DNA from: Nipponacmea schrenckii
Taxonomy: Eukaryota > Mollusca > Gastropoda > Lottiidae
Direction of reading: 5' to 3'
DNA length: 64,000 nucleotides
Assembly (NCBI GenBank): GCA_030562195.1
Contig: CM060199.1
Coordinates: 26,246,338 to 26,310,337 of the forward strand
The number at the start of each line of letters is the position of its first letter. Within the stretch, counting starts at the first letter, position 1. The notes under the pieces are model-generated. The model did not search any database and was not told where the DNA came from. It worked only from the letters and a program-made list of their open reading frames with translations. Shown piece after piece: positions 657 to 57,189 of the stretch. A program made the translations under genes and the position numbers.

Positions 657-999
657 AGCCAATGTCAGAGTGTTTAACGACTTTAACGATTGACTTTAAC
701 TTATATTGAATTGAATTATGCTTTTCAGATATAACACCAAATACACTTATTACAATGTTGCATCTACGAACTGTTATTTCTGATATAGTGCGTGTATCAA
801 ATTCTTTATTCATATAGCATAGTATGACAACTTTGTAACAGAATATGGTCATTTCTCATTTTCTTTCTTATTTCTCCACATTACCACTGTTTCGATCCTC
901 TAGACAGTTTAATTTCTCTAGAAATTAGCCTTGATCCAAATAACTATATTATATTGTTTGAATTTTGTTGCGTATTAAGTTTGTTGTTACTTTTATATA

Positions 1000-3824
1000 A
1001 TGAATTTGAAGCCTTTACTATTTAAAAGGGGATTGCATTTTGGTCATATAAATGTAAGACATATTATTAACAAAATGGATGAATTATCTAGTTTAATCTC
1101 TATGTTTGATATCTTTGGTATAACTGAAACGCATCTGGATGTTACTGATATAAATGAGTCTGATATTGGAATTAAGGGTTTTCATCCACCATTAAGGCGA
1201 GATAGTTGTAGTGTTAGTAACTCTGGTATCATTTTTTATATAAATGAAAATATTAATTTTAAAAGGCGATATGATCTTGAAAAAACTGACATTGAATGTA
1301 TTTGGCTTGAATTGCCTTTAGTGAATCAATCGCCTATTCTAGTCTGTTGTGTATATCGGAACCCTAACAAATGCTCTAAAACTACATGGTTAAAATCATT
1401 TGAAAATATGATAGAAGGAATTTGGCATCTAGGTTTAGAAACACTAATAATGGGCGATATAAACATTGATGTTTTTAACTCTAATAATCCGCATTTTACT
1501 GATTTATTAAATTCATATAATTTAACTCAAATCATTGATCAGCCAACTCGAGTAACACCAAATACTTCAACTATTATTGATCATATTATTGTTTCTCATA
1601 CTGAACATGTAATTGAATCTATAGTTCCAAATTATTCTATATCTGATCATTATCCTATTTGTTTTACCTGGAATAGGAAAGGGGTTCATATTCCTAAGTC
1701 TGAGCATATACAGATCAGTTACAGATGTTTTAAAAATTTTAACAAAGATGAATTCATTGAAGACCTAAAATTAGCTAACTTCGATATTATATATGATGAA
1801 AATGACCCTAACACAGCTTTACAGATATGGTATAATATTCTGAATGAAATATTAGATAAGCATGCTCCGATTAGAATCAAACGTGTTAAATCTTTGACCA
1901 AACCTCCTTGGCTAACTAAAGATATTGTTAAATTAATCAGAATTAGAGATGATCTCAAAAAGAATTTGTACAAATTTTATAGGAACAAAATCAAAACTGA
2001 AATTAGAAAATCCAAACAAAATTATTATAAATCTTTATTGACTGATCAATCGTCGTCGAAAGAAATCTGGAAAGTAATAAATTCTGCTTGTAATAAAACC
2101 AAATCCTCAAGTTCTTCTATTCCTTTACAATCTGATACTATTAATAAACATTTTTGTAACATTGCTTCCCAACTTCTTCAAAATTGTTATGGGGAAAATA
2201 TACCAGAAGATCTATCTGTGTCTAACTGTCAAATTATAAATGATTTTGTGTCAAAAAATTTAACTGCGCCCTCCTTTTATGATATCCCCTACATAAGAGT
2301 GAATGAAGTTTTTAAATACTTGAATTCTTTACAAGAAAACAAAAGTTCAGGATTAGATAATATTAACCCTTCTTTAATAAAAATGGGAGCAAGTGTTTTA
2401 TCTCCAACATTAACTCATATTTATAATTTATGCATTGATCAACATATCTTTCCTAATGTCTTCAAAATAGCAAAAGTTTTACCTTTGCATAAATCTGGCT
2501 CAAAAACTGACCCTAATAACTATCGTCCGATTTCACTTTTACCGGTGTTGTCGAAACCACTTGAAAAACATATTTCGAAATCTCTGAATGGTTTCCTTTT
2601 AGATAATAATCTTTTATATTCAAATCAGTCTGGTTTCAGAACTCATTATTCATGTTTAACTTCGTTAACAAAATTCACAGGAATTGTTTATGACGCTATT
2701 AATAACAAGGATCTTTGTGGAGCAGTATTTTTTGACCTGCAGAAAGCTTTTGACTTGGTCAGTCATAAAATATTACTTAAAAAATTTAAACTGTATCATA
2801 TTTCAGATCGATCTATTTGTATGTTTGAATCTTACCTACAGCATAGAAAACAGAGATCTTTTATTAATGGTCAAATGTCAAACTTGCATTCTGTCATGTA
2901 TGGTGTTCCTCAAGGCTCTATATTAGGACCTTTATTCTTTAATATTTTTATAAATGATCTTCCGCTACATTTGAAATCAAATGTTGATCTTTTCGCCGAT
3001 GATACCACTGTATATTCTGTAGGTAATAGTTTAGATATTGTCCAATCTCAGCTTCAAGAAGATACTGATTCTATTATGAACTGGTGTACATCTAATTTGA
3101 TGAAAGTAAATATTTCGAAAACAAAATGTATGTTAATAACAACTTATCAAAACCGTCAGCTACTACCCGTCAACAAATTAGACATAATGATAAATAATGA
3201 AAAGATAGAAAATGTCTCTAATTTCAAATTGCTAGGAGTTGTTGTAAATCAAGATATGAACTGGAAATTCCATATCAAACATATTTCTAGAATTTTAAGT
3301 ACAAAATTGTTTCAACTTCGTAAAATTCAAAAACTCTTTCCAGAAAATCTTCGAGCCTTGTATTTCAAAGGACATATTCAACCTTATTTAGATTATTGTT
3401 CACCAATTTGGGATAGTTCTAGTGTGAAATCAAAAACATTAAAACGTCAAGAAAAACGCTCATAAATTAATACTGAATACTAATAACTATATCTCTAACA
3501 ATTATAAAAATCAGCTTAGATCCATGAATATTATTGACTATACTATAGGCCATAAGTTTAATTCTGTTGTATTTACATTTAAGATACGTAATAATTTATG
3601 TCCGAGATACCTTTCTAATATGTTTTTATCCTACAAAACATCTTATTCGTCAATTAATAAAAAAGTTAACGTTTACTAAACCTAGAATAGACCTTTATAA
3701 ACACAGTTTAAAATATAAAGGTGTAAAATTGTGGAATAATCTATCAGTTAAAATAAGAGAAGCCAAATCACTCCATTCTTTTAAGAAATTGTCTAAACTT
3801 CATTTTTATGGAGATTTAAAATGA
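1000..3824 (+). pseudogene. CR1-A1 ORF2: AP endonuclease plus reverse transcriptase, two frameshifts
   Basis: ORF2 of a CR1-like retrotransposon, starting at the ATG at 1000. The N-terminal endonuclease/exonuclease/phosphatase fold shows HINVRH, ITETHLD, CVYRNPN, MGDINID, IIDHIIVS and SDHYPI. The reverse transcriptase shows [38 protein letters not shown] and the catalytic LFADDTT, then KLLGV and the thumb. The main frame is open to 3465. There an extra A in the run 3452-3456, compared with the copy at 46960, shifts the frame. A second extra A lies in the run 3659-3664. The last part ends at 3824. With two one-base corrections it would be about 940 codons, full length for the family, so this is a young copy or one with consensus errors. 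Confidence 0.85.
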
Positions 3825-7597: not shown

Positions 7598-9161
7598 CTG
7601 CAGTCGCCCAGTCTGAAGCAGATATTCAGCCAGATTTACGAAGAAGGGAACGAATCTGTAAATCACAGTTGACGAAAGCGAAGCTGTATTTGACGAGTTT
7701 GCTATGTTCCAGTGCAAGAGACATTGATGGCATCAGATCAGCAGTTGATAGTATTCTGCGATACCAGGAAGAGGTAATAGACATTTTAAATCATCTTTGT
7801 GATATTTCTGCCGACTATGAGAATGAATTTGAGACTGTTCAATCTGACAGTAGTGTAGCCGAAGTTTTGAGTAAAGCCACAGACTGGCTGGGTCAGGCAT
7901 CAAGTATGACTCCTCAGATCACCTCACATCGTTTTGCTAATTTACAACAGGGAGCACAGACCACACAAGATGATTCCTCTTTAGATAATTCTGGTAGTAT
8001 CTTGCAGAATGGTAATGGTAATTTTAAGTATTCAACAACCGTCAAATTTCAGTCAGATTGATAGAGATTTGCATCGACAACTTAGAAAGGTTTCCATCAA
8101 CAAATTTAATGGTAACAAACGTGAATATCAGGTATTCAAAGATGCATTCATGGAGTGTGTTGACAAGTCATCTTGTTCGAAGGCATATAAAATGCTTCAG
8201 CTGCGTCAGCACTTGACTGGTGACGCTTTGAAATGCATAGAAGGGTTTCCGGCATCTGAATTGGGTTACGATTCAGCACTCAAACGTTTGCATGATAAAT
8301 TTGGTGGGCAACGTCGTCAAACTCTTATCCACTTGGACACCATTCGAATGATGAAGCCTGTAAGCTTTAACGATTTAAAACGATTTGAACAATTCGTTGA
8401 TGCACTTGAACTATGTATTTTGTCACTGCAAGAAAATGGTCGCAACGAGGAATTCGAAGTAGACTCTATGTTCGTTTGTGTCACTAGGTCGAAACTCACA
8501 TCTTCGTGTCTATTGCAATTTAAACGTTGGGCAGCTAGCTCTAAAAAGAACGAGTCACTTGTAACCCTACATGAATGGCTTGCCCATGAAGTTCGTTATA
8601 GGATTGAATCCAACGAAGAAATTGAAGGATTTTCTTCAGTCTCGAATGACTCAAAAACACTATCTAGCAATCAAAGACCCCATTTTCGCAGTGATAGACA
8701 TTCTAAAACGTATGCAACAAATTCAATAGATTCAAAATTATGTGTTGTGTGTTTGAAAACACATGATCAGGGAGTCAGTAACTGTTTCTATTTTAGATCC
8801 CTTCCAGTTTCGCAACGATGGAGAGTTGCTAAGGAAAAGCGCCTGTGCTTGCGTTGCTTAGGTAATAGCCACATTGGTAATCGCTGTACAGCTGCACAGC
8901 AGTGCTCTATAGGTGAATGTACTCGTACGCACCACTTCCTCCTCCACGGAGGGGGATCTGGCAACTTTCGAAATTATGAAGCTCCAGATTTACGTTCCAG
9001 TGCTCCTTTAGATCAAGCCTCAGAGAAATTTGCTAAGTCGCATCCACGTTCTGTTCAGCCACTGACCGTTTGTGATGAATTTACATCGCAAAAACAAACT
9101 CATGCACAGATTAACAACAGAGCTTCCTTCGTAATGCGAATAGTTCCTATAATTATTCGTA
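7597..9161 (+). pseudogene. BEL/Pao LTR retrotransposon gag (DUF1759-type), frameshifted and cut by gap
   Basis: Gag of a BEL/Pao element. The N-terminal part (7597-8060) is helical and opens without a visible start, because the LINE-C tail precedes it. Near 8010-8060 the frame shifts by one, and the main part runs from about 8060 to the gap. It contains the capsid-like DUF1759 region (VSINKFNGNKREYQVFKDAF, then ALKRLHDKFGG) and two zinc-binding modules near the end: CVVCLKTHD and CLRCLGNSHIGNRC followed by a CSIGECTRTHHFLLH type motif. Such gag proteins package the element RNA. Protease, RT, RNase H, integrase and both LTRs are not visible; the sequence goes into Ns. Confidence 0.85.
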
Positions 9162-9661
9162 NNNNNNNNNNNNNNNNNNNNNNNNNNNNNNNNNNNNNNN
9201 NNNNNNNNNNNNNNNNNNNNNNNNNNNNNNNNNNNNNNNNNNNNNNNNNNNNNNNNNNNNNNNNNNNNNNNNNNNNNNNNNNNNNNNNNNNNNNNNNNNN
9301 NNNNNNNNNNNNNNNNNNNNNNNNNNNNNNNNNNNNNNNNNNNNNNNNNNNNNNNNNNNNNNNNNNNNNNNNNNNNNNNNNNNNNNNNNNNNNNNNNNNN
9401 NNNNNNNNNNNNNNNNNNNNNNNNNNNNNNNNNNNNNNNNNNNNNNNNNNNNNNNNNNNNNNNNNNNNNNNNNNNNNNNNNNNNNNNNNNNNNNNNNNNN
9501 NNNNNNNNNNNNNNNNNNNNNNNNNNNNNNNNNNNNNNNNNNNNNNNNNNNNNNNNNNNNNNNNNNNNNNNNNNNNNNNNNNNNNNNNNNNNNNNNNNNN
9601 NNNNNNNNNNNNNNNNNNNNNNNNNNNNNNNNNNNNNNNNNNNNNNNNNNNNNNNNNNNNN
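9162..9661. other. Assembly gap of exactly 500 N
   Basis: Run of 500 Ns, a fixed placeholder length, so its true size is unknown. Left of it is BEL/Pao gag; right of it is the end of a DNA transposon in mid-intron. Nothing links the two sides. Confidence 0.99.
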
Positions 9662-10269
9662 TATCGTGGTCAGCGACAATAATAGTGTTTTACAATGTCT
9701 GAAGATTAGATTAGACCTGCCTGGTTCATTCATGCTTCCAGGAATTTCCAGTCTAAGGTCAGGAAGTAGGATATCCTAAATAGGCGTACGAATCTTACCT
9801 TTTTGCAAATCCCAGTTCATATGCGGTTATGTTGTCAAAACATTCCTTCTCAAAATGTTGTAGACAAGAACGCTCGATGCCGATGGCTGCCAAGAATCGG
9901 CACGCTTCTGTCTCACAAATACGGCCCATTTTCTAGCTCGTTTATGATCCTTTGGCCACTCAAATAATTGTCTGTCCTGGTGACAACAATGCATAGCCAC
10001 ACATCGCCGTGGCATGATGAATAAGATTACGCACTATGGGAAATTATCATGGCGGCCTGTCGGGTCGTTCTAGGCTTGACGTCATTATACGAAAATTACC
10101 GATGATTACCGAAGATTTTCATCTTCGTTACTAGGGTGTTGCTATGGGCTTACGGTAGGGTTACGGTGGATTTTTTAAAAAAAAAACATTTTTGGAATAT
10201 GTTTTTATTCATTTACTAAATATGTACAATGAAAAATATCAAAAAAAAATTTTGCTTGACATAACGTCT
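9662..10269 (-). mobile_element. Kolobok-like DNA transposon, right end only (copy 1)
   Basis: About 608 bp matching 56579-57185, the right end of the complete transposon, with scattered substitutions and small indels. It contains part of intron 1, the THAP exon, the promoter region and the terminal inverted repeat. The element ends in ACGTCT at 10269 and is followed by TTAA (10270-10273). To the left it is cut by the gap. The flank to the right is the 3' end of a CR1-B element, and the TTAA equals the intact empty site at 18160-18163. Confidence 0.85.
9799..10015 (-). pseudogene. THAP-domain exon 1 of transposase, copy 1
   Basis: First coding exon of the transposase, reading from the ATG at 10015 to a GTAAG donor at 9798. 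It encodes the first Cys pair of a THAP C2CH zinc finger (RRCVAMHC), the conserved Pro (FEWPKD) and the conserved Trp (ARKWAV). A one-base loss near 9865 relative to copy 2 then shifts the frame, so the last Cys-x2-His pair is lost. The reading after that point (NITAYELGFAK) is intact here, whereas copy 2 has a two-base insertion there. THAP domains bind DNA; in transposases of this class they recognise the element ends. Confidence 0.75.
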
Positions 10270-10273
10270 TTAA

Positions 10274-19379: not shown

Positions 19380-22025
19380 GTTAAGGAAAGATTACCATTC
19401 CCCCAAATTTAAAATTGATCCAAAATTTTTTAAATTTAAAAAAACCTTTTTTTTGTTTAATCAAATTGATTTGTGGTTTTTGCACCACAAGTTTTGAATT
19501 TATGCTAGAATAATTTATACGAATTAAAATTATGCCTGGTTTTAATGTCAAAAATATTAAGCCTTTTAAGATTCAGTGACAAATCAGTATCGTACTTAGA
19601 ACCAAGAATTAATTTAAAAGCACTTTTTTGTTGCCTATGTAAAATATCGGCCGATGCAATGTCGTGCGAATCCCAAATAGTTGAACAATAATCCAAATAT
19701 GGTTGAAAGTGACATTTATAAAAAATAGATCTATATTTTTCAGGCATGATCTTTCTTAACTGTCGCAGTTGAAATAACTTAGTATTTAAATTTTAGCAAC
19801 GAACTTTACGTGCGGAGTCCATGAGAGATTTTGATTCACAGTAACTCCTAGTAATTTAAAGTTTTCAACTTGTTCAATAAATTGATTATTTAGTTCAATT
19901 GATAAATCTGCTGAATATCTTCTTTTTTGAGCAGTTGTAATTGACATACATTTGGTTTTATTTTCATTTGAAATTATGACATTAAAAGAACACCATCAGT
20001 ATCTTCTTGCAATTTTAATTGTATGTGCGTAACCGATTTACCAATAGTATAAATCGTACTACATGTATCATCCACAAAAAGATCACAGTTAGAGATAATA
20101 TGCAACGGTAAATCAATTTAAAATAAAGATTAAACAACAAGCGACCTAAAATTGATCCTTATGGTACTCCATTCTTTATACTGCGAGAAGACGAAAGCGT
20201 CCATTGACGTAACAACGCTGGGTATGATTCGATAAGTAACAATTTATGATGGTTATTAATGCATTCGAAAAATTGTATAGTTTTACTTTTTCAATAATTA
20301 TCTCATGGGAAATCAAATCAAATGCTTTTGTAAAATCAAAGAAAATAGAACTAACCATAAGATTATTATTTACTGCATCAGAAACGTTATAAATTATGTT
20401 AGTCAGAGCTGTTTGACAAGAACTATTAGACCTAAAACCAGATTGGTGCGAATACAATAACTTATTATTATTTAAGAAATTATTTATATGTTTTGAATAA
20501 TGTCTTTCAAGCGGTTTAGATACACTAGAAAATACAGAAATTGGTCTATAATTATAAGGGTCAGATTAAGCGCCAGATTGAAACAGTGGTAAAATTTTTG
20601 CTTCTTTAAATTTATCAGGAAATATATTTGCATCGATGCATAGATTATATAATATATGTGTCAAGGGACCACTTAACGTAAAAGCACTATATTTGAGAAA
20701 TAGGGGATTTAATTTATGCAAACAAGCACTTTTGGTTGCATTTAACGAAGACAACTGTTTAAAAACTTCATATTTGTTGAAGTGGGGAATCGAACATTCT
20801 TCATAAGAACTTCTAGTTTATTTACGCATTAACTTTTATCAATATTTCTATTAACATGCTTTTGATTAATCAATTTGGATGCAATATTTGAAAAATGATC
20901 ATTGACTACCTCGGGTTCTAAAGGAATCAGATAAGTTGAATTATTAGCCTTATTAGTTAAGGAGTTGATAACTTTCCAGATATGTTTTGAGTTTTTCTGA
21001 TCTGAAGCAAGTTTTATGTTTAACTGTTTTTGGCTTTATCGATCATTTTAATGACCAAATTCCTACACTTTCGATATTCCTCATCTTTGCCTTTCTTTTT
21101 CAAACCGTCTCTAATGTGCATTAAATTTAAAATTTCAGAGTCTAACCAGGGTGACTTTATTTCATTTTTGACACGTTTTAACTTTAATGGAGCATGGGTA
21201 TCAATTATTGGCTGGATAATATTATACCAAGATTCTAACGCAATATTGGGGTCAGATTTAGTATAAATTTTATCAAAAGGGGCTGTTGCAAGATCATTAT
21301 TAAATAAACCCCAATGTGTCATACTCCGGTAGTAAATATAAACATGTTTAGGTTTTGGAATATGTGCGCCTTTTTTATTCCAGGTAATACAAGTTAGGTA
21401 GTGATCAGAAAAACCATATACCGGGACATTAACTTCAGTTATATTACTTTCATTCGAAACGATAACATGATCAATGATAGTGGAAGATGTTTTAGTTACT
21501 CGAGTAGGAAGTTTTATAATTTGTTTTAAACTATATAAAGACAGTAAATTATTCCAATTTGAATTTTTTCCATTAGACACATCCATTTTAAAATCACCTA
21601 ACACAATAATTTCTTTATTTTCGTTCCACACCTTTTCAGTCATTTGAGTCTAACCAGCATTTATTAGAATTCGGGTGCCTATAAATGCAACATATTAATA
21701 AGGGTTTATGTTAAGTGAGATTTATTTCAATCCAAATTGCTTCTATACCAAGAGATTCTAAATATTCCCGCCTCCTACAATTTAAATGTTCTTTAACAAA
21801 AAGTTAAGCTGAACTATTATTACACTTATTTTTTAGAAATGACAAGTGAAAACCTGGAGTACTGAAATATTTAGTTGGTACAAACGAATTGAGTGAGTGA
21901 GTTTCAGATAAACCAAAATTGTCAAAATTTGAAATAAGTTTGCAAATTTGAGTCTTTTTATTTACCACATGGCAAACATTTAAGTGGCCAATATGAAGAC
22001 CCCGCTCTTTTAAAAAGTTATACAT
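19380..22025 (-). pseudogene. CR1-B4 ORF2: endonuclease plus reverse transcriptase, broken
   Basis: Endonuclease: ERGLHIGHLNVCHVVNK near the start, then VLGDFKMDVSN (21615), IIDHVIVSNES and FSDHYLTCITWNKKG; in the third motif an Asp-Ile of the family has become Asp-Phe. RT: fingers at 20754-20566, NYRPIS about 20550, NQSGFR-like SHQSGFRSNSS and FFDFTKAFDLISHEI at 20457-20176, then [11 protein letters not shown] and catalytic codons in other frames around 20050-20170, and thumb at 19747-19505. It has several frameshifts and an internal stop. Confidence 0.75.
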
Positions 22026-33637: not shown

Positions 33638-34303
33638 TTAAGAGATAATATGCAACGGTAAATCAATAATATAAAGATTAAACAACAAGCGACCTAAAAT
33701 TGATCCTTGTGGTACTCCATTCTTTATACTGCGAGAAAACGAAAGCGTTCCATTGACGTTACAACGCTGGGTAGGATTCGATAAGTAACAATTTATGATG
33801 GTTATTAATGCATTCGAAGAATTGTATAGTTTTACTTTTTTAATAATTATCTCATGGGAAATCAAATCAAATGCTTTTGTAAAATCAAAGAAAATAGAAC
33901 CAACCATAAGATTATTATTTACTGCATCAGAAACGTTATAAATTATGTTAGTCAGAGCTGTTTGACAAGAACTATTAGATCTAAAACGAGATTGGTGCGA
34001 ATACAATAACTTATTATTATTTAAGAAATTATTGATATGTTTTGAATAATGTCTTTCAAGTGGTTTAGATACACTAGATAATACAGAAATTGGTCTATAA
34101 TTATAAGGGTCAGATTTAGCGCCGGATGTATACAGTGGTAAAACTTTTGCTTCTTTGAATTTATCAGCATATATATTTGCATCAATGCATAGATTATATA
34201 ATATATTTGTCAAGGTATCACTTAACGTAAAAGCACTATATTTGAGAAATAGGGGATTTAATTTATCTAAACCAGCACTTTTGGTTGCATTTAACGAAGA
34301 CAA
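33638..34303 (-). pseudogene. CR1-B5 reverse transcriptase fragment, open for 221 codons
   Basis: The longest unbroken RT reading of the B family here: SSLNATKSAGLDKLNP, NYRPISVLSSVSKPLERHYS, FFDFTKAFDLISHEI and [17 protein letters not shown]. It stops just before the catalytic Asp-Asp, where a one-base change shifts the frame; DDTC-like codons follow at about 33610. In the usual [10 protein letters not shown] the Pro is Arg. Confidence 0.75.
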
Positions 34304-34599
34304 CTGTTTAAAAACTTCATATTTGTTGAAGTGGGGAATCGAATATTCTTCATTAGAACTTCTAGTTTATTTACGTAATGACTTTTATCAATATTTCTAT
34401 TAACATGCTTTTGATTAATCAATTTTGATGCAGTATTTGAAAAATGATCATTGACTACCTCGGGTTCTAAAGGAATCAGATTAGTTGAAGAATTAGTCTT
34501 ATTAGTTAAAGAGTTGATAACTTTCTAGAACTTTAAAAAGTTAAACATATTATATGGTTTAAAACAATTAGTAAAATAGACGTCTGGCTGTTGATGAAA

Positions 34600-49084: not shown

Positions 49085-49505
49085 AGCGGCATTCATCTTT
49101 GATCTTTCACGCATTAACATAAAATTAGCATATTAGGGATAGAAATCACATAAAATGAACGATGGAACCCATAAAATTGGTGTTTATTTCTCCTAAATCC
49201 GTATTGAGGTAATTAAAGTGTAGAAATCACATTAAAATATTAATCATGATAATAAAGGTGTATAAATCTCGTTAAACACAGAAGTGTACTGTTTTTCGAC
49301 TAATTGAACAACACTACTATGTTCTTATTTTCTATGGAGGGGGAGGTAGGATTTGTCCATGCTCAAGACCAGCTTTAAGGATGTTTACTCATCCCCCGAC
49401 AGTAATATTTTAGATTTGCAAAATGGTTCAAGTTAGGCCAAAATAGAATTGTTGGTGGTGATATACCTGTGGGAAAGGGAAAAATAAAATTAATAAATTA
49501 CTTAA
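49085..49505 (-). repeat. Left flank of transposon: inverse copy of 18160-18615 with CR1-B 3' tip
   Basis: Bases 49446-49505 equal, on the opposite strand, the last 45-60 bases of CR1-B3 (GGTATATCACC to TTAA). Bases 49085-49445 equal the sequence beyond that element. This is the missing outer part of the left inverted-repeat arm. Confidence 0.85.
49502..49505. other. TTAA target-site duplication, left
   Basis: TTAA directly before the transposon end AGATGATATGTCAAG; the same four bases follow the other end at 57186-57189. Confidence 0.85.
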
Positions 49506-49525
49506 AGATGATATGTCAAGTAAAT
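49506..49525 (+). repeat. Left terminal inverted repeat
   Basis: AGATGATATGTCAAGTAAAT; pairs with 57166-57185. Confidence 0.8.
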
Positions 49526-49639
49526 AGAAAAAGTTCCAATTTGGAATTTCTGGCTATGAATGATAACCAATGTGACTTATAATAAATATTCCATAATTTT
49601 ATTTTGATAAAAACATTCATTTTTGATGGAATAATGACT

Positions 49640-49727
49640 ATTTTCCGAAGTTGACTTCAAAATTCCCCTAATATTGAGTGGCCCGGATGTGTTACGTCAT
49701 TCCTAGAACCCGCTTCTAGAAACAAAC
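49640..49727 (+). promoter_or_regulatory. Probable promoter of the P2X7-like gene, shared motif with the other end
   Basis: Contains TTACGTCATTCCTAGAAC (49691-49708). The promoter region of the transposase reads GACGTCCAGCCTAGAAC at the matching distance before its ATG (about 57004-56988, minus strand). The ACGTCA core resembles CREB/ATF sites. Inference only. Confidence 0.35.
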
Positions 49728-50583
49728 ATGGCTACCAGTTCTGATTCTGAGTGCAGTTCTCCGTCTTATTTCTCCACTAATGATGATGTTGACGAGTTAC
49801 AAGTGCTAGAGGACGATAATGAAGAGGAAGTGGAACATTTAGAATATGTTGGGCCGTATATGCATGAGCCAGATGCAGATGACTGCGAAGAACTTGTGCC
49901 CGAAATCGAGGACCGACAGTGGTGGAGGCTCGATGGAGGGAGATTGAATGAGTGGTAAGCATTATTTTTACCAAGATTTACAACTTTGGAATCTTCCTTA
50001 AATGGTCATATGTTCAAATAAGGTGTCAATAGATAGGCCTGGCTGTACAGACAGGATAGCCATAATAAAATTACAACTAAAAGCCAGTGTAGGTAGGCCC
50101 ACATGTATTGTGACATTGTGTGCAGAGACCAGTAGGGGCCTACTAGTAGACTGTGTGTATGGTTTTATGTGGTTGGTTTATTTGACATATAAATTAAAAG
50201 TACTGTACTATGAAACTTATAAATTTCTCTTCTCGTTATGTAGGTGCTCGTGTGGCAATTGCCAGCCAATGGCTTCCGCAGCAGAATGTGTGTGCTGCAA
50301 AGAGTTGGACAAGACTGCTGATAAAATAGCCGAGGGTGAAGAGTTTCATGCGATAAAGCTAAAGTGTATTTGTGATCATCCAGGCATCAACAGTGTGTGC
50401 TTGGATCCTTATGTGCTTCAAGTGGCATGGCTGAACTACAAACAGCAGTATGGGGGCAAGGCTTTCGAAGGGCCTCAAGACGTGAAATACAGACATATTG
50501 GATATCGCCAACTGGTACGATGGTGCTGGGATTATCTTGGTAGGGAAAACAGAGTGGTTTTGCCCGCATGTGCAGTGTCATGA
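49728..50583 (+). CDS. P2X7 C-terminal ('ballast')-like domain protein, two exons, early TGA
   Basis: Exon 1 is 49728-49954 (donor GTAAGC) and exon 2 is 50244-50583 (acceptor TTATGTAG). The 76-residue acidic start (SSDSECSS, DDNEEEVEHLEYVG, DRQWWRL) leads into WCSCGNCQPMASAAECVCC, then CICDHPGINSVCLDPYVLQ, RHIGYRQLVRWCW and NRVVLPAC. These Cys clusters and the RW-W/LG-RVV order are those of the intracellular zinc- and nucleotide-binding domain of vertebrate P2X7 receptors. The domain also occurs alone in many invertebrate proteins. There is no channel part. A TGA (50581-50583) interrupts conserved sequence: the frame goes on with IRAHFPPPGNEEDYNFKGF to TAA at 50674-50676. Role in the transposon is unknown; accessory or regulatory is a guess. 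Confidence 0.8.
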
Positions 50584-50739
50584 ATACGTGCACATTTCCC
50601 TCCTCCTGGAAATGAAGAGGATTATAATTTCAAGGGATTCAGACAAATAGTGCGTAGACTACCTCACTTAAGATAAACTTTATGCTTTCTCAATTCATCA
50701 GTATAAACATCCAAAGCTGTACGATGTTATTTATTGAAT

Positions 50740-51450
50740 TAAGCGTATTTTGAATGATTTAATACAGATGCAAGATACAAGATTGCCAAAATTATGTTAT
50801 CAAATGCTTTATAATCTAGATGTAAATGGTCGTACAAAGTGGTGTACATATGTACGTAATATTTTATTTAAGTATGGTTTTGGTCATGTATGGATAAACC
50901 AGGGCGTTGCTGATGTTAATATATTTATGAACTGTGTTTTAAACAGCATGTAAGAGTGGCATGATTTTTATCACTAACTCATCAAAATGTAGATTCTTTA
51001 GTAAATGAAAATCTAATTATATACTGTGAAACATTTAAACAGCACCCTTTCGCACAGACGTTTTGCATTGTCAAATTTCAAAAGTTCAAGACATAATCTC
51101 GAAATAGAACAAGGTCTTTAAAATAAAATCCCAATGAATGAATGAATATATATATATATATGTAAAGTATGCAAAACAAAACAAATTAATCACGAGGTTC
51201 ATTTTATAATAGACTGTCCAATTTTAAGAGATCTGAGGCAAAGTTGCCTTCCACCATGGCTCATAAAACCTCTGTAACCTAAACCTAAACCTAAAGTAAT
51301 TTAATTCTATTATTTGATTCAAATGACCTTTATGTAATTTGTAACCTATCGATGTATATAACTAATGAATAGAAGTAAGAAATAAAATTGTAATTTTTAT
51401 CAATATGATTTTAAAAACTTTCCAATTTATTAAACAGCAATGAACTATTT
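50740..51450 (+). pseudogene. LINE fragment inside the transposon
   Basis: C-terminal LINE ORF2 codons in several frames: RLPKLCYQMLYNLDVNGRTK, KYGFGHVWINQGV, a FKSSRHNLEIEQG-like stretch, then CKVCKTKQINHEVHFIIDCP (zinc knuckle, 51160-51220). An AACCTA short repeat and AT-rich 3' UTR follow to about 51450. It is an insertion between the two transposon genes. Confidence 0.65.
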
Positions 51451-51582
51451 TATATTTGTATTTTATATGGTAAATTCACTTGATATTGTTCGTATTAGAA
51501 GTGTAGGTCTGTGCCTTATAGTTGTAATTAAAGACGTTTTGATTGTTTTAAAATTTATATCAATAAATAGTTGTAAATATTG

Positions 51583-54500
51583 TCAGTTCTTTTTGAACCG
51601 GGAGCAGTGTGTCCCTATAGCCTCACTTTTGTCAGGCCTTTCAAATTGTGATGCCAAGCTGTCTGGTTCCTTCATCGAGAACTCGTTCCAGTCTTTGCGC
51701 TTCAGCTTGGCAATCCTTATCACTTCTGAAAAACATTCCTCTGCATATCCTAAAAATTGAAGTGAGAATTTATTATGATAGTTGCATTCAACGGTATACT
51801 TGTCACATAAGAGATTATCAAAATGAAATGACTGGAGTTTTACATCCTACTCCTCTGCACCTTATGAGCAACACCATGCAGTGTGCAATGAGGGAATTTG
51901 CCAAAACAGCGGCATTACTCTGGTCTGTTTAGATTTCCAACTGTCGAGGGATCTTTAAAGTGCAAAGTCTGTAGCACTCTGGGCTGCGACTTGCATCACT
52001 GACCAGGGGAAACGGCTGAAAAAAAACCCTGAAGGTTCATCTCGACCTTTGTCGGTATTTAACCTGGGACCCTAAATAACATAAATATTTAGAACTTACC
52101 ATACGTGGCTTCAACCAGGACTTTCCTCAAAGAATAGCCACCATTCTTATATTTAGGAAAGGCAATGCTGTAACAATTTTCTCCTTCTTTGGTCACTGCC
52201 TGGGGACGTCCAGCATTCTCATTATAATGCATGGCAGCAAGGATAATCCTGATAAATGATGTAGAAATTGATTAGTATAATTGATAACCCCTGCAATCAT
52301 TAATTAAATTAATCCGACAGCCCATTAATCCCACAAGGCACAACCTGAAGTTGGACACGAGTAACTCTTGTTTTACAACCGTATTTCTAACAGCTAATAA
52401 AATGGCATCAGTGCTCTTGATAACAAAATTATTTTCCTGATTGAAGACTTCTCCCCAAAAAACTATATTTGTTACAGTACCTGCTGCACATGCCTTGGTG
52501 TGACAACTTGTACATTTTTGGTGCAAAGTGATTTACCACACTATGGTAAGACTCCACCCCACTTGTTTGGCCCAGTGATGACATCTTTGATACATCATTG
52601 ACAAACATTGTCTTTGTAAGAAGATCAACGACGACAACATTCACCTCAGTTCCTGTGAAAAAAAGAATATAGTACATGTATGTAAATAGTGATGAATGTC
52701 ACTAGTCAGGATATTCAAAATCTATACATTGTGTACACTCCAACTTGAAGTGTGAAAATAAGACTCACCTGGTTTCAGCCATTTCTTGTTCTTGACAATG
52801 GGAGGATGGTTGCAATTGTCCTGTACATTTTGTATGTGCTCTGTACATGCAAGCCATTTTGTCTTGATTTCTTCACCATTCTTTGAAGAAAGGGCACACC
52901 AATACAGATGACATTTTATGCTCTGCACCCAGTCTTTTAAAATTACCATATTCTTTTTCTTTGCGAGTGCGTCTAGCTTTTTGGTCAAACCTGAAAAAAA
53001 AAGTTTGTCAAAAAAAGAATTCTGAGATTATTGCTAAACATAACATGTCCCCTAACAGCCTCAACTGTAAGTCCTTTAATTAGGCAAAAATTGTCCAATT
53101 TTGTCTATATCCGAACTTGATCAAAGCAAATCCATATACCAAATTCCAGGTCAATATCTGAAAGGACAACTGAGAAATGTCCGAAAAAATAAGTTGATGG
53201 ACGGACAAGACAGGTTGCCAGAACAAGCCTATATCCCAACTTGATCTGTATAACATCAAAGCAAACCCATATACCCAATTCAAAGTCAATATATCCAAGG
53301 ACCACTGACAAAATTCCAGAAAATTAAGTTGAGGGACAGGGAGACTAAGGGGGCATAGGAATAATATAATTTATTTACCCTTCACTATGTGCCAGCAGTC
53401 GAAGAAATGAGGAACTTTCCAATTCTCCCTTATCCATTTAGAAATTTGCCGATGCCGATCCGTTACAACTGCCTTTATATTGAATCCTTTGACCTCTTCT
53501 ATACATCTTTTAAGGCCCTCTAACTCCATTCCGTAACTCCCATTTGTCTCATTACTCTGCAAAATTAGGATGTAAAATAGAACAAGCATGACCACAAATT
53601 AAAGTCCCATAACTCTGATAAAAAATTAAGAATTTCGTCTAAATTAGAACTTTTTCTTTATAACTTCAAAACAAAAACATATTCCAAATTGCAGGTCAAT
53701 GACAACAGAGAAAAGTCTCAAAACTAAGTGGATGGACTGACAAACAGACAGATGGATAGATGGACAGGGTCCCTATTCGAACTTGATTTGAATTACATCA
53801 AAACAGACCTATATACCAAGACATGACAGCTTAATCGTTATGTTATGAAACCTCACCTGAACTAATTGAACTGTAAGGATTTTATTTACATTCAGCTCCA
53901 TCAAGCAGTAACTCCCAAACTTAGCACTGTGACCCATAGAGTCACAGTGGGCATCTCCTCCGAGCACCAATTCTTCATCCTTCAAAGAGTTCAGTTGGTT
54001 GTCCTGCTTTCTTTTCCATGTAGCTTGGACAGCTTGGTGCAAGTATTGTCTTTGGTGACGGAAATATGATCTCAATTGCTGACACTGGATATTGAGAAAG
54101 CTGAAACCATGAATGATAGTAATGTAGTTTGAATTTTATTGTATTCTCAATTCTAATGGGTTTCTAATCTGCTGAACTGATTGAAACGATAATTTTAACC
54201 ATGCATTCTCCCTTAGATTGACAAAATACCCTAATCCTAGACAGTATTCGTCCATTCTGTCATTCCATGAATCTTGTCAATTTATCAATCTTTTCAATCT
54301 GTTCAGCAGAATAGAAACTCCCATTCTAGAAAATTGAAAATACTCTGTAGCATTGCTGTTATAGAATGACAATAGGTATGATCATATGTCAGTAGAAAGT
54401 AAGACATTCCACACACTTGTATTATGATCGCAACTTGGCTGAGTATGTACAAGGTTAGTCGTAACTATCCCTCACTTCATGCACAATCAGTATTTTATTA

Positions 54501-56934
54501 CCAGTCTCTTGTGAAATGTATACAGTAGGTTGCACTTGTATGATAGTTCATTTGGGATGTTTCATAACAATTAACGATTAAACAGTACCCTATAACATGA
54601 GGATGTTTCGCCTCAATCTTTGATTTTCATTTCATAACACATGCTACATACCTCAATACCCTGAAGACCTTACTAGGCAAGCTACCAGTAAACAGGATGG
54701 CTGAGCTCAGCAACAAGTTCATCACTGGCATATTCTTTATTAATGGTTGGTTGCGCCATTCCCCCTTCTGTCCACATTTCTGACAGGCCGTTTTAACTTG
54801 GAGCAGAGTGCCTTTTACATATTTGGTGCAGGTATTTTGCCCCCCACACTTCGAACAGAGGGACAATAACACAAACAAAGCTGATTCAAATACGATGTAT
54901 TTTGGTTGTTTATGGTAATCGTCATCCTGGCAATCCCTAAAATAAAGATTTAAGAATGCAAATTCTCAATTATGACAAGACCTGTAATTAATAATTATCA
55001 ACTATTTTTTTTTTTAATTCAATTCAATAAAAGTTAAACTTAAAAAGCACTCACTTCATTTCTTGAAACCTGATGTTTTCTTCAGGCTCCGCATCGTCTG
55101 AACTTGGACTATAGTCGGCATCTCTCGGATCTTCTTCTGGAATAGACTCGTCATCTTCAGATATGTCAGAGTAGTCTGATTCTTCTTCCTCATCATCAAT
55201 TGCTTCTGTCAGAGGCTTTGCAGTTTTTCTCCTTTTCGGTTCACACGGCGCTGGTAGTTCGACCTCTATTTGCACTGGATGGCAATGGATCGGCGTCTTG
55301 ATTGTCCAGGGGTTGGAGGTTTCCACTGCAAGGTTTGAGTCTCTATGAATAGAAAAATATAAATACCGTTACACAATCACAATAATATTGCAAATTCTCG
55401 ACTCGCCTGACTGCTGCCACGCGTTCAACTTGTATTCGTGTGTCGCATGATACTATTAATAACTCAGTGACCCAGATTCCATCCGAATTTTTTAATAACA
55501 ATCCAGCTTTATTCAATTGTTCATTCACATTTTTATCAGAATTTTAACGCCTTTATCATAATCTAAGTTACTTATTAATAGGATTTGTCAAAATAAGTAC
55601 CAGCGATAAACATGTGCTTAATTTCTATTAGCGTGTTTCTTCTATTTTCCGAATCATGATCCAAGACATTTGATGCAATGACCTTGATCTTAAATAAGGT
55701 CATGTGCGGTGATTAATCATAAAATTTAGTTCAGATTTCTTTTTGTCTTCGTGTGACACTATGCAATCAAAAAAGCTGTTATCTAAAATTACTAATTATA
55801 TAGTTGGATTCAGTATATCAAACCATTTCAACACAAAACTGGCCTAATATAGATAGGAATGAGAAACAAAACATTCGGTTACGATGATAATATGCTACTT
55901 GACCAACGGTTGTTAACCCCTCGTGATTATCACAAGCAGTAAAATCAACTATTCTATCGTACAGATTAACTCGGATTAGGTTGTGCCCAACCTAGTCATG
56001 TATACTTACTTTTGTTCTCTTTGGGAGGTGGCTCTTCTATCGGCTCGTCACTAGGCCTAGACTGATTGACATCTTCTTGCTTGTCAAGATTCATAGGCAC
56101 ATCATCAGTGTCTGTGGCGGTGTTGACAACTTGAAGATCTTCTGGTGGGTGAGGTTGACATCCGTCTACTGAACCCCTGTTAAGAGTCTTTGCCGTTCAC
56201 GTTTGGCGTATGCAGAACGTGGTCTTTTTGGTGTGTCTAACAAATGCGATCCAGGTTGTTGTCGGTCTTGTGCTGTATGTTCCTTTGGTGCAGTTAGATG
56301 GATAGTTGGCACTGCATCAGACTTCGGCATTAGCCTAAAAGAGGAAAATGGCAGTGGTAGTAGTAAATAGAACAGTCTCGTAAATGACGAGTGCTGTTAC
56401 TTGTAGTAGTGTTGGCCCTTAGTTTGGCGAGGTCTTGAAGTAAGTTGTACATTTGAAAGAACTAAACTCATTCTAGGTTAGTGAGGAGTAGGCCTTAGGC
56501 CGCTAGGCATGGGCCCCACAAACTCAGTGACTGACATGATGAGTAGGCACAGGCACTGTCTCGGTCTTAGATTATAATATCGTGGTCAGCGACAATAATA
56601 GTGTTTTACAATGTCTGAAGATTAGATTAGACCTGCCTGGTTCATTCATGCTTCCAGGAATTTCCAGTCTAAGGTCAGGAAGTAGGATATCCTAAATAGG
56701 CGTACGAATCTTACCTCTTTGCAAATCCCAGTTCATATGCGGTTATATGTTGTCAAAACATTCCTTCTCAAAATGTTGTAGACACAGAACGCTCGATGCC
56801 GATGGCTGACAAGAATCGGCACGCTTCTGTCTCACAAATACGGCGCATTTTCGAGCTCGTTTATGATCCTTTGGCCACTCAAATAATTATCTGTCCTGGT
56901 GACAACAATGCATAGCCACACATCGCCGTGGCAT
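51583..56934 (-). pseudogene. THAP plus DDE-type transposase gene (Kolobok-like), ten exons
   Basis: Coding exons (minus): 56934-56715, 56334-56010, 55325-55055, 54936-54652, 54100-53857, 53556-53379, 52990-52769, 52652-52481, 52248-52100, 51749-51583; every intron is GT-AG and phases fit. Exon 1: THAP C2CH finger. Exon 2: ends the THAP domain with DAVPTIH. Exon 3: acidic, low complexity. Exon 4: zinc ribbon (CSKCGG..., CQKCGQ) and NLLLSSAILFTGSLPSK. Exon 5: GGDAHCDSMGHSAKFGSY with the first catalytic Asp. Exon 6: VTDRHRQI with the second Asp, then FFDCWHIVKG. Exons 7-9: KKWLKPG, GVESYHSVV (probable Glu), AAMHYNENAGRPQA. Lesions are only in exons 1-2: TAA at codon 16 (56889-56887), two extra bases near 56745-56748, Trp to Cys in the THAP domain, and one base short in the C run 56174-56177. 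After correcting the two indels the length is 743 codons. Confidence 0.85.
53090..53345 (-). repeat. Intronic tandem repeat of about 115-120 bp
   Basis: In the intron between exons 6 and 7, two units share TTGATC, CATCAAAGCAAA(C/T)CCATATACC, AAGTTGA(T/G)GGAC. Further related units lie at 53640-53830 in the next intron. This is a dispersed family common in introns; no coding role. Confidence 0.6.
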
Positions 56935-57165
56935 GATGAATAAGATTACGCACTATGGGAAATTATCATGGCGGCCTGTCGGGTCGTTCTAGGCTGGACG
57001 TCATTATACGAAAATTACCGATGATTACCGAAGATTTTCATCTTCGTTACTAGGGTGTTGCTATGGGCTTAAAAGTAGGGTTACGGTGGATATTTTAAAA
57101 AAACATTTTTGGAATATGTTTTTATTCATATACTAAATATGTACAATGAAAAATATCAAAAAATA
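56935..57165 (-). promoter_or_regulatory. Probable promoter region of the transposase gene
   Basis: About 230 bp between the THAP start codon and the terminal repeat. It holds TGACGTCCAGCC, CCTAGAACGACCCG and a small hairpin GAAGAT-TTTC-ATCTTC (57029-57044). The same stretch at 10016-10249 is well kept. Confidence 0.4.
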
Positions 57166-57185
57166 ATTTGCTTGACATAATGTCT
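57166..57185 (-). repeat. Right terminal inverted repeat
   Basis: On the minus strand AGACATTATGTCAAGCAAAT; matches the left end in 16 of 20 bases. Confidence 0.8.
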
Positions 57186-57189
57186 TTAA
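57186..57189. other. TTAA target-site duplication, right
   Basis: TTAA after the element end. The sequence beyond (TAAGAAAAGTTCGAGCG) is not the expected continuation of the left flank; that continuation is found at 10274 instead. Confidence 0.8.

What the first reader, a model, noticed from the sequence alone, without database searches (positions are those of the whole stretch)
49506..57185. A Kolobok-like transposon carries a P2X7 'ballast'-domain gene as a second, convergent gene
Seen: a 7.68-kb unit bounded by matching ends (16/20) and TTAA holds exactly two structured genes: a ten-exon THAP/zinc-ribbon/DDE transposase and a two-exon protein with the Cys-rich domain known from the P2X7 receptor tail. 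The latter starts about 220 bp from the left end, the former about 250 bp from the right end, and both upstream regions share ACGTC...CCTAGAAC. Known: Kolobok transposases have THAP domains and use TTAA; P2X7-tail-like domains occur as stand-alone proteins in many invertebrates. Inference: the ballast-domain family may be a transposon-borne accessory protein, which would explain its spread and suggest a transposon source for the domain in vertebrate P2X7.
Basis: partly seen in the sequence, partly recalled or inferred. Interest (0 to 1): 0.9.

Follow-up and report, generated by a model that had tools for sequence, protein, structure and literature searches.

The report
Kolobok transposon carrying P2X7-tail-like gene

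Summary
Window 49506-57185 is one Kolobok DNA transposon: AG...CT ends, TTAA on both sides, a ten-exon THAP-DDE transposase on the minus strand and a two-exon P2X7 'ballast' gene on the plus strand, convergent. Other copies in the same genome fix the ends: 5 left and 5 right ends stop at TTAA with unrelated flanks, and both two-ended copies hold the ballast gene. Of 8 further ballast-gene places outside this family, 7 have Kolobok transposase or THAP sequence facing them within 1.5 kb. Ballast and transposase relatedness run in parallel. The predicted fold of a relative matches P2X7 and nothing else clearly. The window copy is broken in both genes.

Kojima & Bao 2022 (PMC9587614) name this protein KolX, place it in the two-protein Kol0 lineage, and conclude that P2X7 arose by fusion with it. 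So this is a new member of a known kind. Small additions: deletion derivatives that keep KolX and THAP, and a CRE-like box upstream of the transposase gene in three families (of both genes in one). What KolX does in transposition is unknown; I think it is an accessory subunit.

The parts
49502..49505 (.). left TTAA target-site duplication
   Evidence: same TTAA at four other left ends with different flanks
49506..49525 (+). left terminal inverted repeat, begins AG
49694..49709 (+). shared upstream motif ACGTCNNNCCTAGAAC (CRE-like box plus CCTAGAAC), 19-34 bp before the KolX ATG
49728..49954 (+). KolX (ballast-domain) gene exon 1, acidic N-terminus
   Evidence: donor GT at 49955
50244..50583 (+). 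KolX exon 2: ballast domain (P2RX7_C), ending at an in-frame TGA at 50581-50583 not seen in the three other copies that hold this stretch; the frame stays open beyond it to a stop at 50674-50676, as in relatives
56715..56934 (-). transposase exon 1: THAP DNA-binding domain, broken by one stop and one frameshift in this copy
   Evidence: THAP E=0.012, below cut-off; 61% identity to the THAP of P0019
56010..56334 (-). transposase exon 2: AVPTIH box at the end of THAP, then linker; apparent frameshift near 56170-56200 in this copy
55055..55340 (-). transposase exon 3, acidic linker
54652..54936 (-). transposase exon 4 with CxxC pairs (zinc-ribbon-like, by eye)
53857..54100 (-). transposase exon 5, first catalytic D (GGDAHCD; assigned by eye from the known signature)
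53379..53556 (-). transposase exon 6, second D (TDRH) and DxxH signature (DCWH); Pfam MULE match below cut-off
52769..52990 (-). transposase exon 7, H2CH-like region (by eye)
52481..52652 (-). transposase exon 8, catalytic E (GVESYH; by eye)
52100..52248 (-). transposase exon 9
51583..51749 (-). transposase exon 10 and stop
56986..57001 (-). shared upstream motif ACGTCNNNCCTAGAAC, 52-67 bp before the transposase ATG
57166..57185 (-). right terminal inverted repeat, ends CT
57186..57189 (.). right TTAA target-site duplication
9662..10273 (+). second copy in the window: right end only (608 bp, 96.7% identical, same orientation) plus TTAA at 10270-10273; what lay to its left is lost in a 500-N assembly gap (9162-9661)

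Best explanation
The unit is a member of the Kolobok superfamily of cut-and-paste DNA transposons, of the two-protein kind called Kol0. It moves when its transposase binds the ends through the THAP domain, cuts at TTAA and rejoins the element at another TTAA (mechanism inferred from the family; the ends and duplications are shown). The second gene encodes KolX, a small zinc-binding protein with the P2X7 ballast fold, made from its own promoter at the opposite end. KolX is an accessory subunit that the element needs for transposition, most likely by assisting assembly or nuclear or chromatin handling of the transpososome (inferred; I know of no assay). This copy inserted recently, then decayed: both genes are now interrupted, though copies with both KolX exons open (L090, L093) and with an open THAP exon (L091, L104) exist in the same genome.
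Against: No test of function. Within this family the copies are too alike to show selection on KolX: 23 of 3273 coding against 25 of 2738 noncoding cells differ from the majority (p=0.39); the tiny p printed came from one copy (L093) with an unrelated 5' flank. In the mirror test five of the nine partners were simply a listed hit of the species (for one Branchiostoma pair even of another record), not proven neighbours. One KolX place of 8 (L112) shows no transposase in the DNA held, and end stubs without KolX exist (L096, L105, L106). The whole-genome search for transposases without KolX never ran (tool busy), so how often Kolobok here lacks KolX is unknown.
Confidence: 0.93

Rival explanations
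1. A Kolobok element captured or landed next to an unrelated host ballast-domain gene, and the pairing is an accident of this place.
For: Stand-alone ballast proteins are described in many animals without mention of transposons (PMC7016195, passages; 0 occurrences of 'transpos'). One of 8 KolX places outside this family (L112) has no transposase in the 1.5-kb flanks held.
Against: The same arrangement recurs: 5 of 5 exact left-end copies of this family and 7 of 8 other KolX places, in three more families; consecutive gene numbers in a fish and a scallop; parallel divergence. Control: 1 of 15 tiles of the window outside the unit gives a transposase hit, and that one is the second copy of this element.
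Confidence: 0.02
2. KolX is a passenger, or acts against the host (for instance as a decoy or sensor), rather than being a part of the transposition machinery.
For: No function is known; deletion derivatives without the DDE core in the DNA held keep KolX (L091; L116; L114, L118 and L119), which would fit a product useful by itself.
Against: Internal deletions spare whatever lies near the ends, and these places were found by a KolX query, so keeping KolX needs no selection; long co-divergence of KolX with the transposase fits a working partnership.
Confidence: 0.2
3. The KolX stop, at a position where relatives have cysteine, is a read selenocysteine codon rather than damage.
For: The frame stays open for 30 codons after it and matches relatives.
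Against: L090, L091 and L093, the three other copies that hold this stretch, have no stop there. No selenocysteine element is among the 8 Rfam matches up to E=10. The transposase of the same copy is broken too.
Confidence: 0.01

Closest known systems
Kolobok Kol0 lineage with KolX (Kolobok-1_XT type; Kojima & Bao 2022, PMC9587614, text parts 1-5 of 6 read)
   Same: DDE transposase plus a second protein with the P2X7 ballast fold; TTAA duplications; 5'-RR...YY-3' ends. The paper states that P2X7 originated by fusion of a P2X4-like gene with KolX, and that zebrafish Nanor is likely a domesticated KolX.
   Different: A new family in an unnamed animal genome. Lineage membership by a tree with Repbase elements was not tested.
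Xenopus XKol elements (PMC6004289, passages)
   Same: AG ends, TTAA, THAP with AVPTIF box, H2CH and DDE; 6.8-13.9 kb; one subfamily has ends with the same TGTCAA core.
   Different: KolX and P2X do not occur in that paper's main text (0 occurrences).
Stand-alone ZCD/ballast proteins and NANOR (Rump et al. 2020, PMC7016195, passages)
   Same: Same protein family; same conserved cysteines; R546 and R578 of the guanosine site kept, H547 in part (here R 70, R 67 and H 50 of 71).
   Different: That paper does not mention transposons (0 occurrences).
P element and its deletion derivatives such as KP (PMC7776569, passages)
   Same: THAP plus RNase H-type transposase; internally deleted copies; KP is a short protein from such a copy.
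   Different: P-element transposase has a GTP-binding insertion domain of its own; it has no ballast protein (recalled).

Membership tests
Kolobok superfamily | TTAA 4-bp target-site duplication | tested here: met
   both sides of the unit and of copy L091; 5 left and 5 right ends in all
Kolobok superfamily | 5'-RR and YY-3' termini | tested here: met
   AG...CT; feature as defined in PMC9587614
Kolobok superfamily | DDE transposase with C/DxxH signature | tested here: met
   GGDAHCD, TDRH, DCWH, GVESYH in order in the open 567-aa frame, assigned by eye; Pfam MULE only below cut-off
Kolobok superfamily | THAP domain with AVPTIF-like box | tested here: met
   broken in the window copy (Pfam THAP E=0.012, below cut-off) but 61-63% identical to the THAP of P0019 and open in copies L091 and L104; AVPTIH in exon 2
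Kolobok superfamily | sequence match to named Repbase Kolobok transposases | not tested
   Repbase is not held here
Kol0 lineage | second protein KolX with ballast fold and seven cysteines | tested here: met
   the fold was predicted for relative P0002, not for the window protein
Kol0 lineage | transposase groups with Kolobok-1_XT in a tree | not tested
   reference sequences not held
KolobokP | long terminal direct repeats | tested here: not met
   no direct repeat above 22 bp between the two 800-bp ends; ends are short inverted repeats
KolobokP | His-Me finger nuclease | tested here: inconclusive
   none among the ORFs and proteins scanned with Pfam; not every ORF of the unit was scanned
piggyBac (also TTAA) | piggyBac-type transposase | tested here: not met
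   the transposase is THAP-DDE with DxxH; no piggyBac match among the pieces scanned

The most novel reading that the evidence does not exclude
KolX is the guanine-nucleotide subunit of the Kolobok transpososome. P-element transposase needs GTP, bound by an insertion domain of its own (PMC7776569, passages). The P2X7 ballast binds guanosine nucleotides (PMC7016195, passages), and KolX keeps two or three of the five contact residues (R546 in 70 of 71, R578 in 67 of 71, H547 in 50 of 71; R574 in 0 of 71 and K583 in 2 of 71, residues mapped by me from the alignment). Kolobok could thus carry in a separate protein what P carries in its transposase, and P2X7 would have inherited a nucleotide sensor made for transposition.
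Probability: 0.06. Interest if true: 0.7.

Novelty: new member of a known kind. Interest (0 to 1): 0.2.

Why it matters
It is an independent confirmation, in another genome, that the ballast domain of the P2X7 receptor belongs to a transposon protein family, with copies, ends and linkage shown. Ballast genes annotated as 'P2X purinoceptor 7-like' in invertebrates and fish (several) should be checked for being transposon genes before any purinergic role is assigned. The one open question of weight is what KolX does for the transposon.

Tried and rejected
Rejected: chance pairing of ends (fixed by other copies); host gene beside the element by accident (linkage recurs); selenocysteine reading of the KolX stop (absent from the other copies); KolobokP and piggyBac as homes. 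Led nowhere: a single-sequence PDB search with KolX exon 2 (0 matches up to E=1) before the profile search; Rfam (8 matches up to E=10, all below their gathering scores); viral contigs (81 pattern stretches, not followed up; 8 stretches matched a peptide pattern but none encodes a relative); the first AlphaFold job with 17 rows (pLDDT 54.4); selection test between copies (the printed p is an artefact of L093's unrelated flank; corrected, p=0.39); search for TTAA-flanked inverted ends in L112-L119 (no convincing pair in about 3.4 kb each); look for the transposase exon 2 frame in L104 and L091 (one search printed nothing for them). In one search three of the cysteine positions were off by one; the correct tally is. 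In the fold search no protein other than P2X7 stood out; that absence shows nothing.

The census of transposases without KolX, and of all end strings, was wanted and never ran: the genome search was busy, and answered only.
Full report
What is there. The unit 49506-57185 lies between TTAA at 49502-49505 and 57186-57189. Its ends are AGATGATATGTCAAGTAAAT and, inverted, AGACATTATGTCAAGCAAAT (16 of 20). On the plus strand a two-exon gene (ATG 49728; exons 49728-49954 and 50244-50583) encodes an acidic leader and a cysteine-rich domain that scores as P2RX7_C (E=7.5e-8, above cut-off). On the minus strand, starting at 56934, lie a THAP exon, an exon with the AVPTIH box, and eight further exons that join at GT/AG sites into one open frame of 567 aa with the DDE and DxxH signatures. 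The genes face each other and end about 0.9-1.0 kb apart.

Is it more than chance. The end match alone is weak: 85 TTAA pairs in the window reach 16 of 20, most of them inside a large inverted repeat. The copies decide. The end string TTAAAGANNNTATGTCAAG occurs three times in the window without mismatch, each time at an end of this element. The window's genome (G000, 399 Mb) holds more copies: L090, L091, L092 and L094 share the left end; L091, L104, L105 and the place at window 10269 share the right end; each has other DNA outside the TTAA. L091 is bounded by TTAA at both ends, has an internal deletion (4366 bp left) and keeps KolX, with a 13-bp gap in exon 1. Identity between copies is mostly 96-99%, so the family moved recently (inference); one fragment pair (L095) is older at 83-85%. 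L093 has KolX without the left end, and L104 has the right end and transposase without KolX; both appear truncated. Short end-like stubs without other element DNA also exist: L096 (51 bp, left), L105 and L106 (84 and 74 bp, right), and a 48-bp match on C247.

State of this copy. The KolX frame has a stop at 50581-50583 that the three other copies holding that stretch lack (L090, L091, L093). L090 and L093 have both KolX exons without stop or gap; L092 has stops of its own and L092 and L094 lack much of exon 2. Transposase exon 1 has a stop and a frameshift and exon 2 an apparent frameshift, while the THAP exon is open in L091 and L104. The window element is therefore dead or dependent on others; a copy with everything open was not sought.

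Linkage elsewhere. A search of the same genome with KolX protein P0002 gave 69 exon matches; the best 12 became loci. Four belong to this family. Of the other 8, with about 1.5 kb held on each side, 7 have Kolobok transposase or THAP sequence in convergent orientation (E<=1e-4 against 10 transposases): L113, L115 and L116 are one family (98% alike), L114, L118 and L119 another (92-98%), L117 a third; L112 has none. The other 57 of 69 matches were not tested for a transposase neighbour, apart from those that lie in copies of the window's family. As a control, 15 tiles of 3.4 kb from the window outside the unit gave one hit, which is the second copy of this element near 9.9 kb. The L114/L118/L119 type shows THAP and KolX but no DDE sequence between them, so it looks like a deletion derivative that itself multiplied, much as internally deleted P elements do.

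Other species. KolX has 17 relatives in a single-sequence search and 230 in a profile search; the transposase has 231 (120 listed in each of the larger two). The best for both are the hemichordate Ptychodera flava and the pipefish Corythoichthys intestinalis, at 57-59%. In the pipefish the two genes bear consecutive numbers (LOC130927604/605), as do two in the scallop Ylistrum (LOC132563537/538). On nine pairs the distance matrices correlate (r 0.74, p 0.0034, 5000 permutations), and window, Ptychodera and Corythoichthys form one clade in both trees. The p value is only indicative. A pipefish grouping with a hemichordate suggests horizontal spread, but I did not test this.

Promoters. It contains a CRE-like box (one base off the perfect TGACGTCA at both genes of the window copy; perfect in the second copy at 10077). 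A perfect box also lies 79, 94 and 95 bp upstream of the THAP ATG in L116, L114 and L119 (two other families). L112 has one upstream of its KolX exon 2, and L113 has three in a stretch rich in GACGTCAAC repeats, but their KolX exon 1 was not identified; L115, L117 and L118 have none in the DNA held. Background: 4 in the 64-kb window, one of them in the second copy, and 7 in 107 kb of other loci, some of which hold element DNA. I read it as a promoter box that drives both genes together; a transposase-binding site is the alternative.

What is known. PMC9587614 (parts 1-5 of 6 of the text) states that KolX, the second protein of the Kol0 lineage, has the cytoplasmic ballast fold, that stand-alone ballast proteins had not been recognised as transposon parts, and that P2X7 arose by fusion of a P2X4-like gene with KolX. 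Searches for KolX with Kolobok (1 paper), Kolobok with P2X7 (2 papers; the second, PMC9319628, holds each word once and was seen as a listing only), P2X7/domesticated/transposon/ballast (5 papers) and nanor/P2X7/transposon (10 listed of 551) showed no other paper on it in their listings; only the open-licence library was searched.

How it works. Shown: one mobile unit, two genes, TTAA ends, near-identical copies, long association of the two proteins. Inferred from the family: cut-and-paste by the THAP-DDE transposase. Inferred with less certainty: KolX is an accessory subunit of the transposition complex. The bold version, that KolX brings a guanine nucleotide as the P-element transposase does by itself, is compatible with the conserved arginines but has no direct support.

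Verdict. Observation confirmed, interpretation supported, novelty low: a new family of a known kind.

Noticed in passing
window 49692-49709 and 56986-57003; L114, L116, L119: A CRE-like box (TGACGTCA or one base off) lies upstream of both genes in this family and upstream of the THAP start in two further Kolobok families; the two promoters of one element look alike.
   Followed up: partly
L114, L118, L119; L116; L091: Deletion derivatives that keep KolX and THAP but lack the DDE core in the DNA held; the first three are copies of one another, so the derivative itself multiplied.
   Followed up: partly
protein P0164 (Saccostrea cucullata): One predicted protein holds both a THAP and a P2RX7_C domain; it could be a fusion gene or a gene-model error.
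   Followed up: no
G000, short places (for instance C3:17484969, C2:2282204, C4:946602): Many further short KolX-like exon matches, probably other families or host genes; not examined.
   Followed up: no
window 979-3462 (+), 33641-34366 (-), 21023-21649 (-): Reverse transcriptase and endonuclease pieces of LINE type (RVT_1, Exo_endo_phos; the last below cut-off).
   Followed up: no
window 7985-9160 (+): ORF with DUF1759 (E=1.4e-16), which I recall from BEL/Pao-type retroelements; it ends at the 500-N gap at 9162.
   Followed up: no
window about 10.2-22 kb, with related stretches near 4.2 kb and 33 kb: Large inverted repeats, with many exact 20-base matches spread over kilobases.
   Followed up: no
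window 54141-54190 and 54288-54343; 53120-53202 and 53255-53337: Short inverted and direct repeats inside introns of the transposase gene.
   Followed up: no
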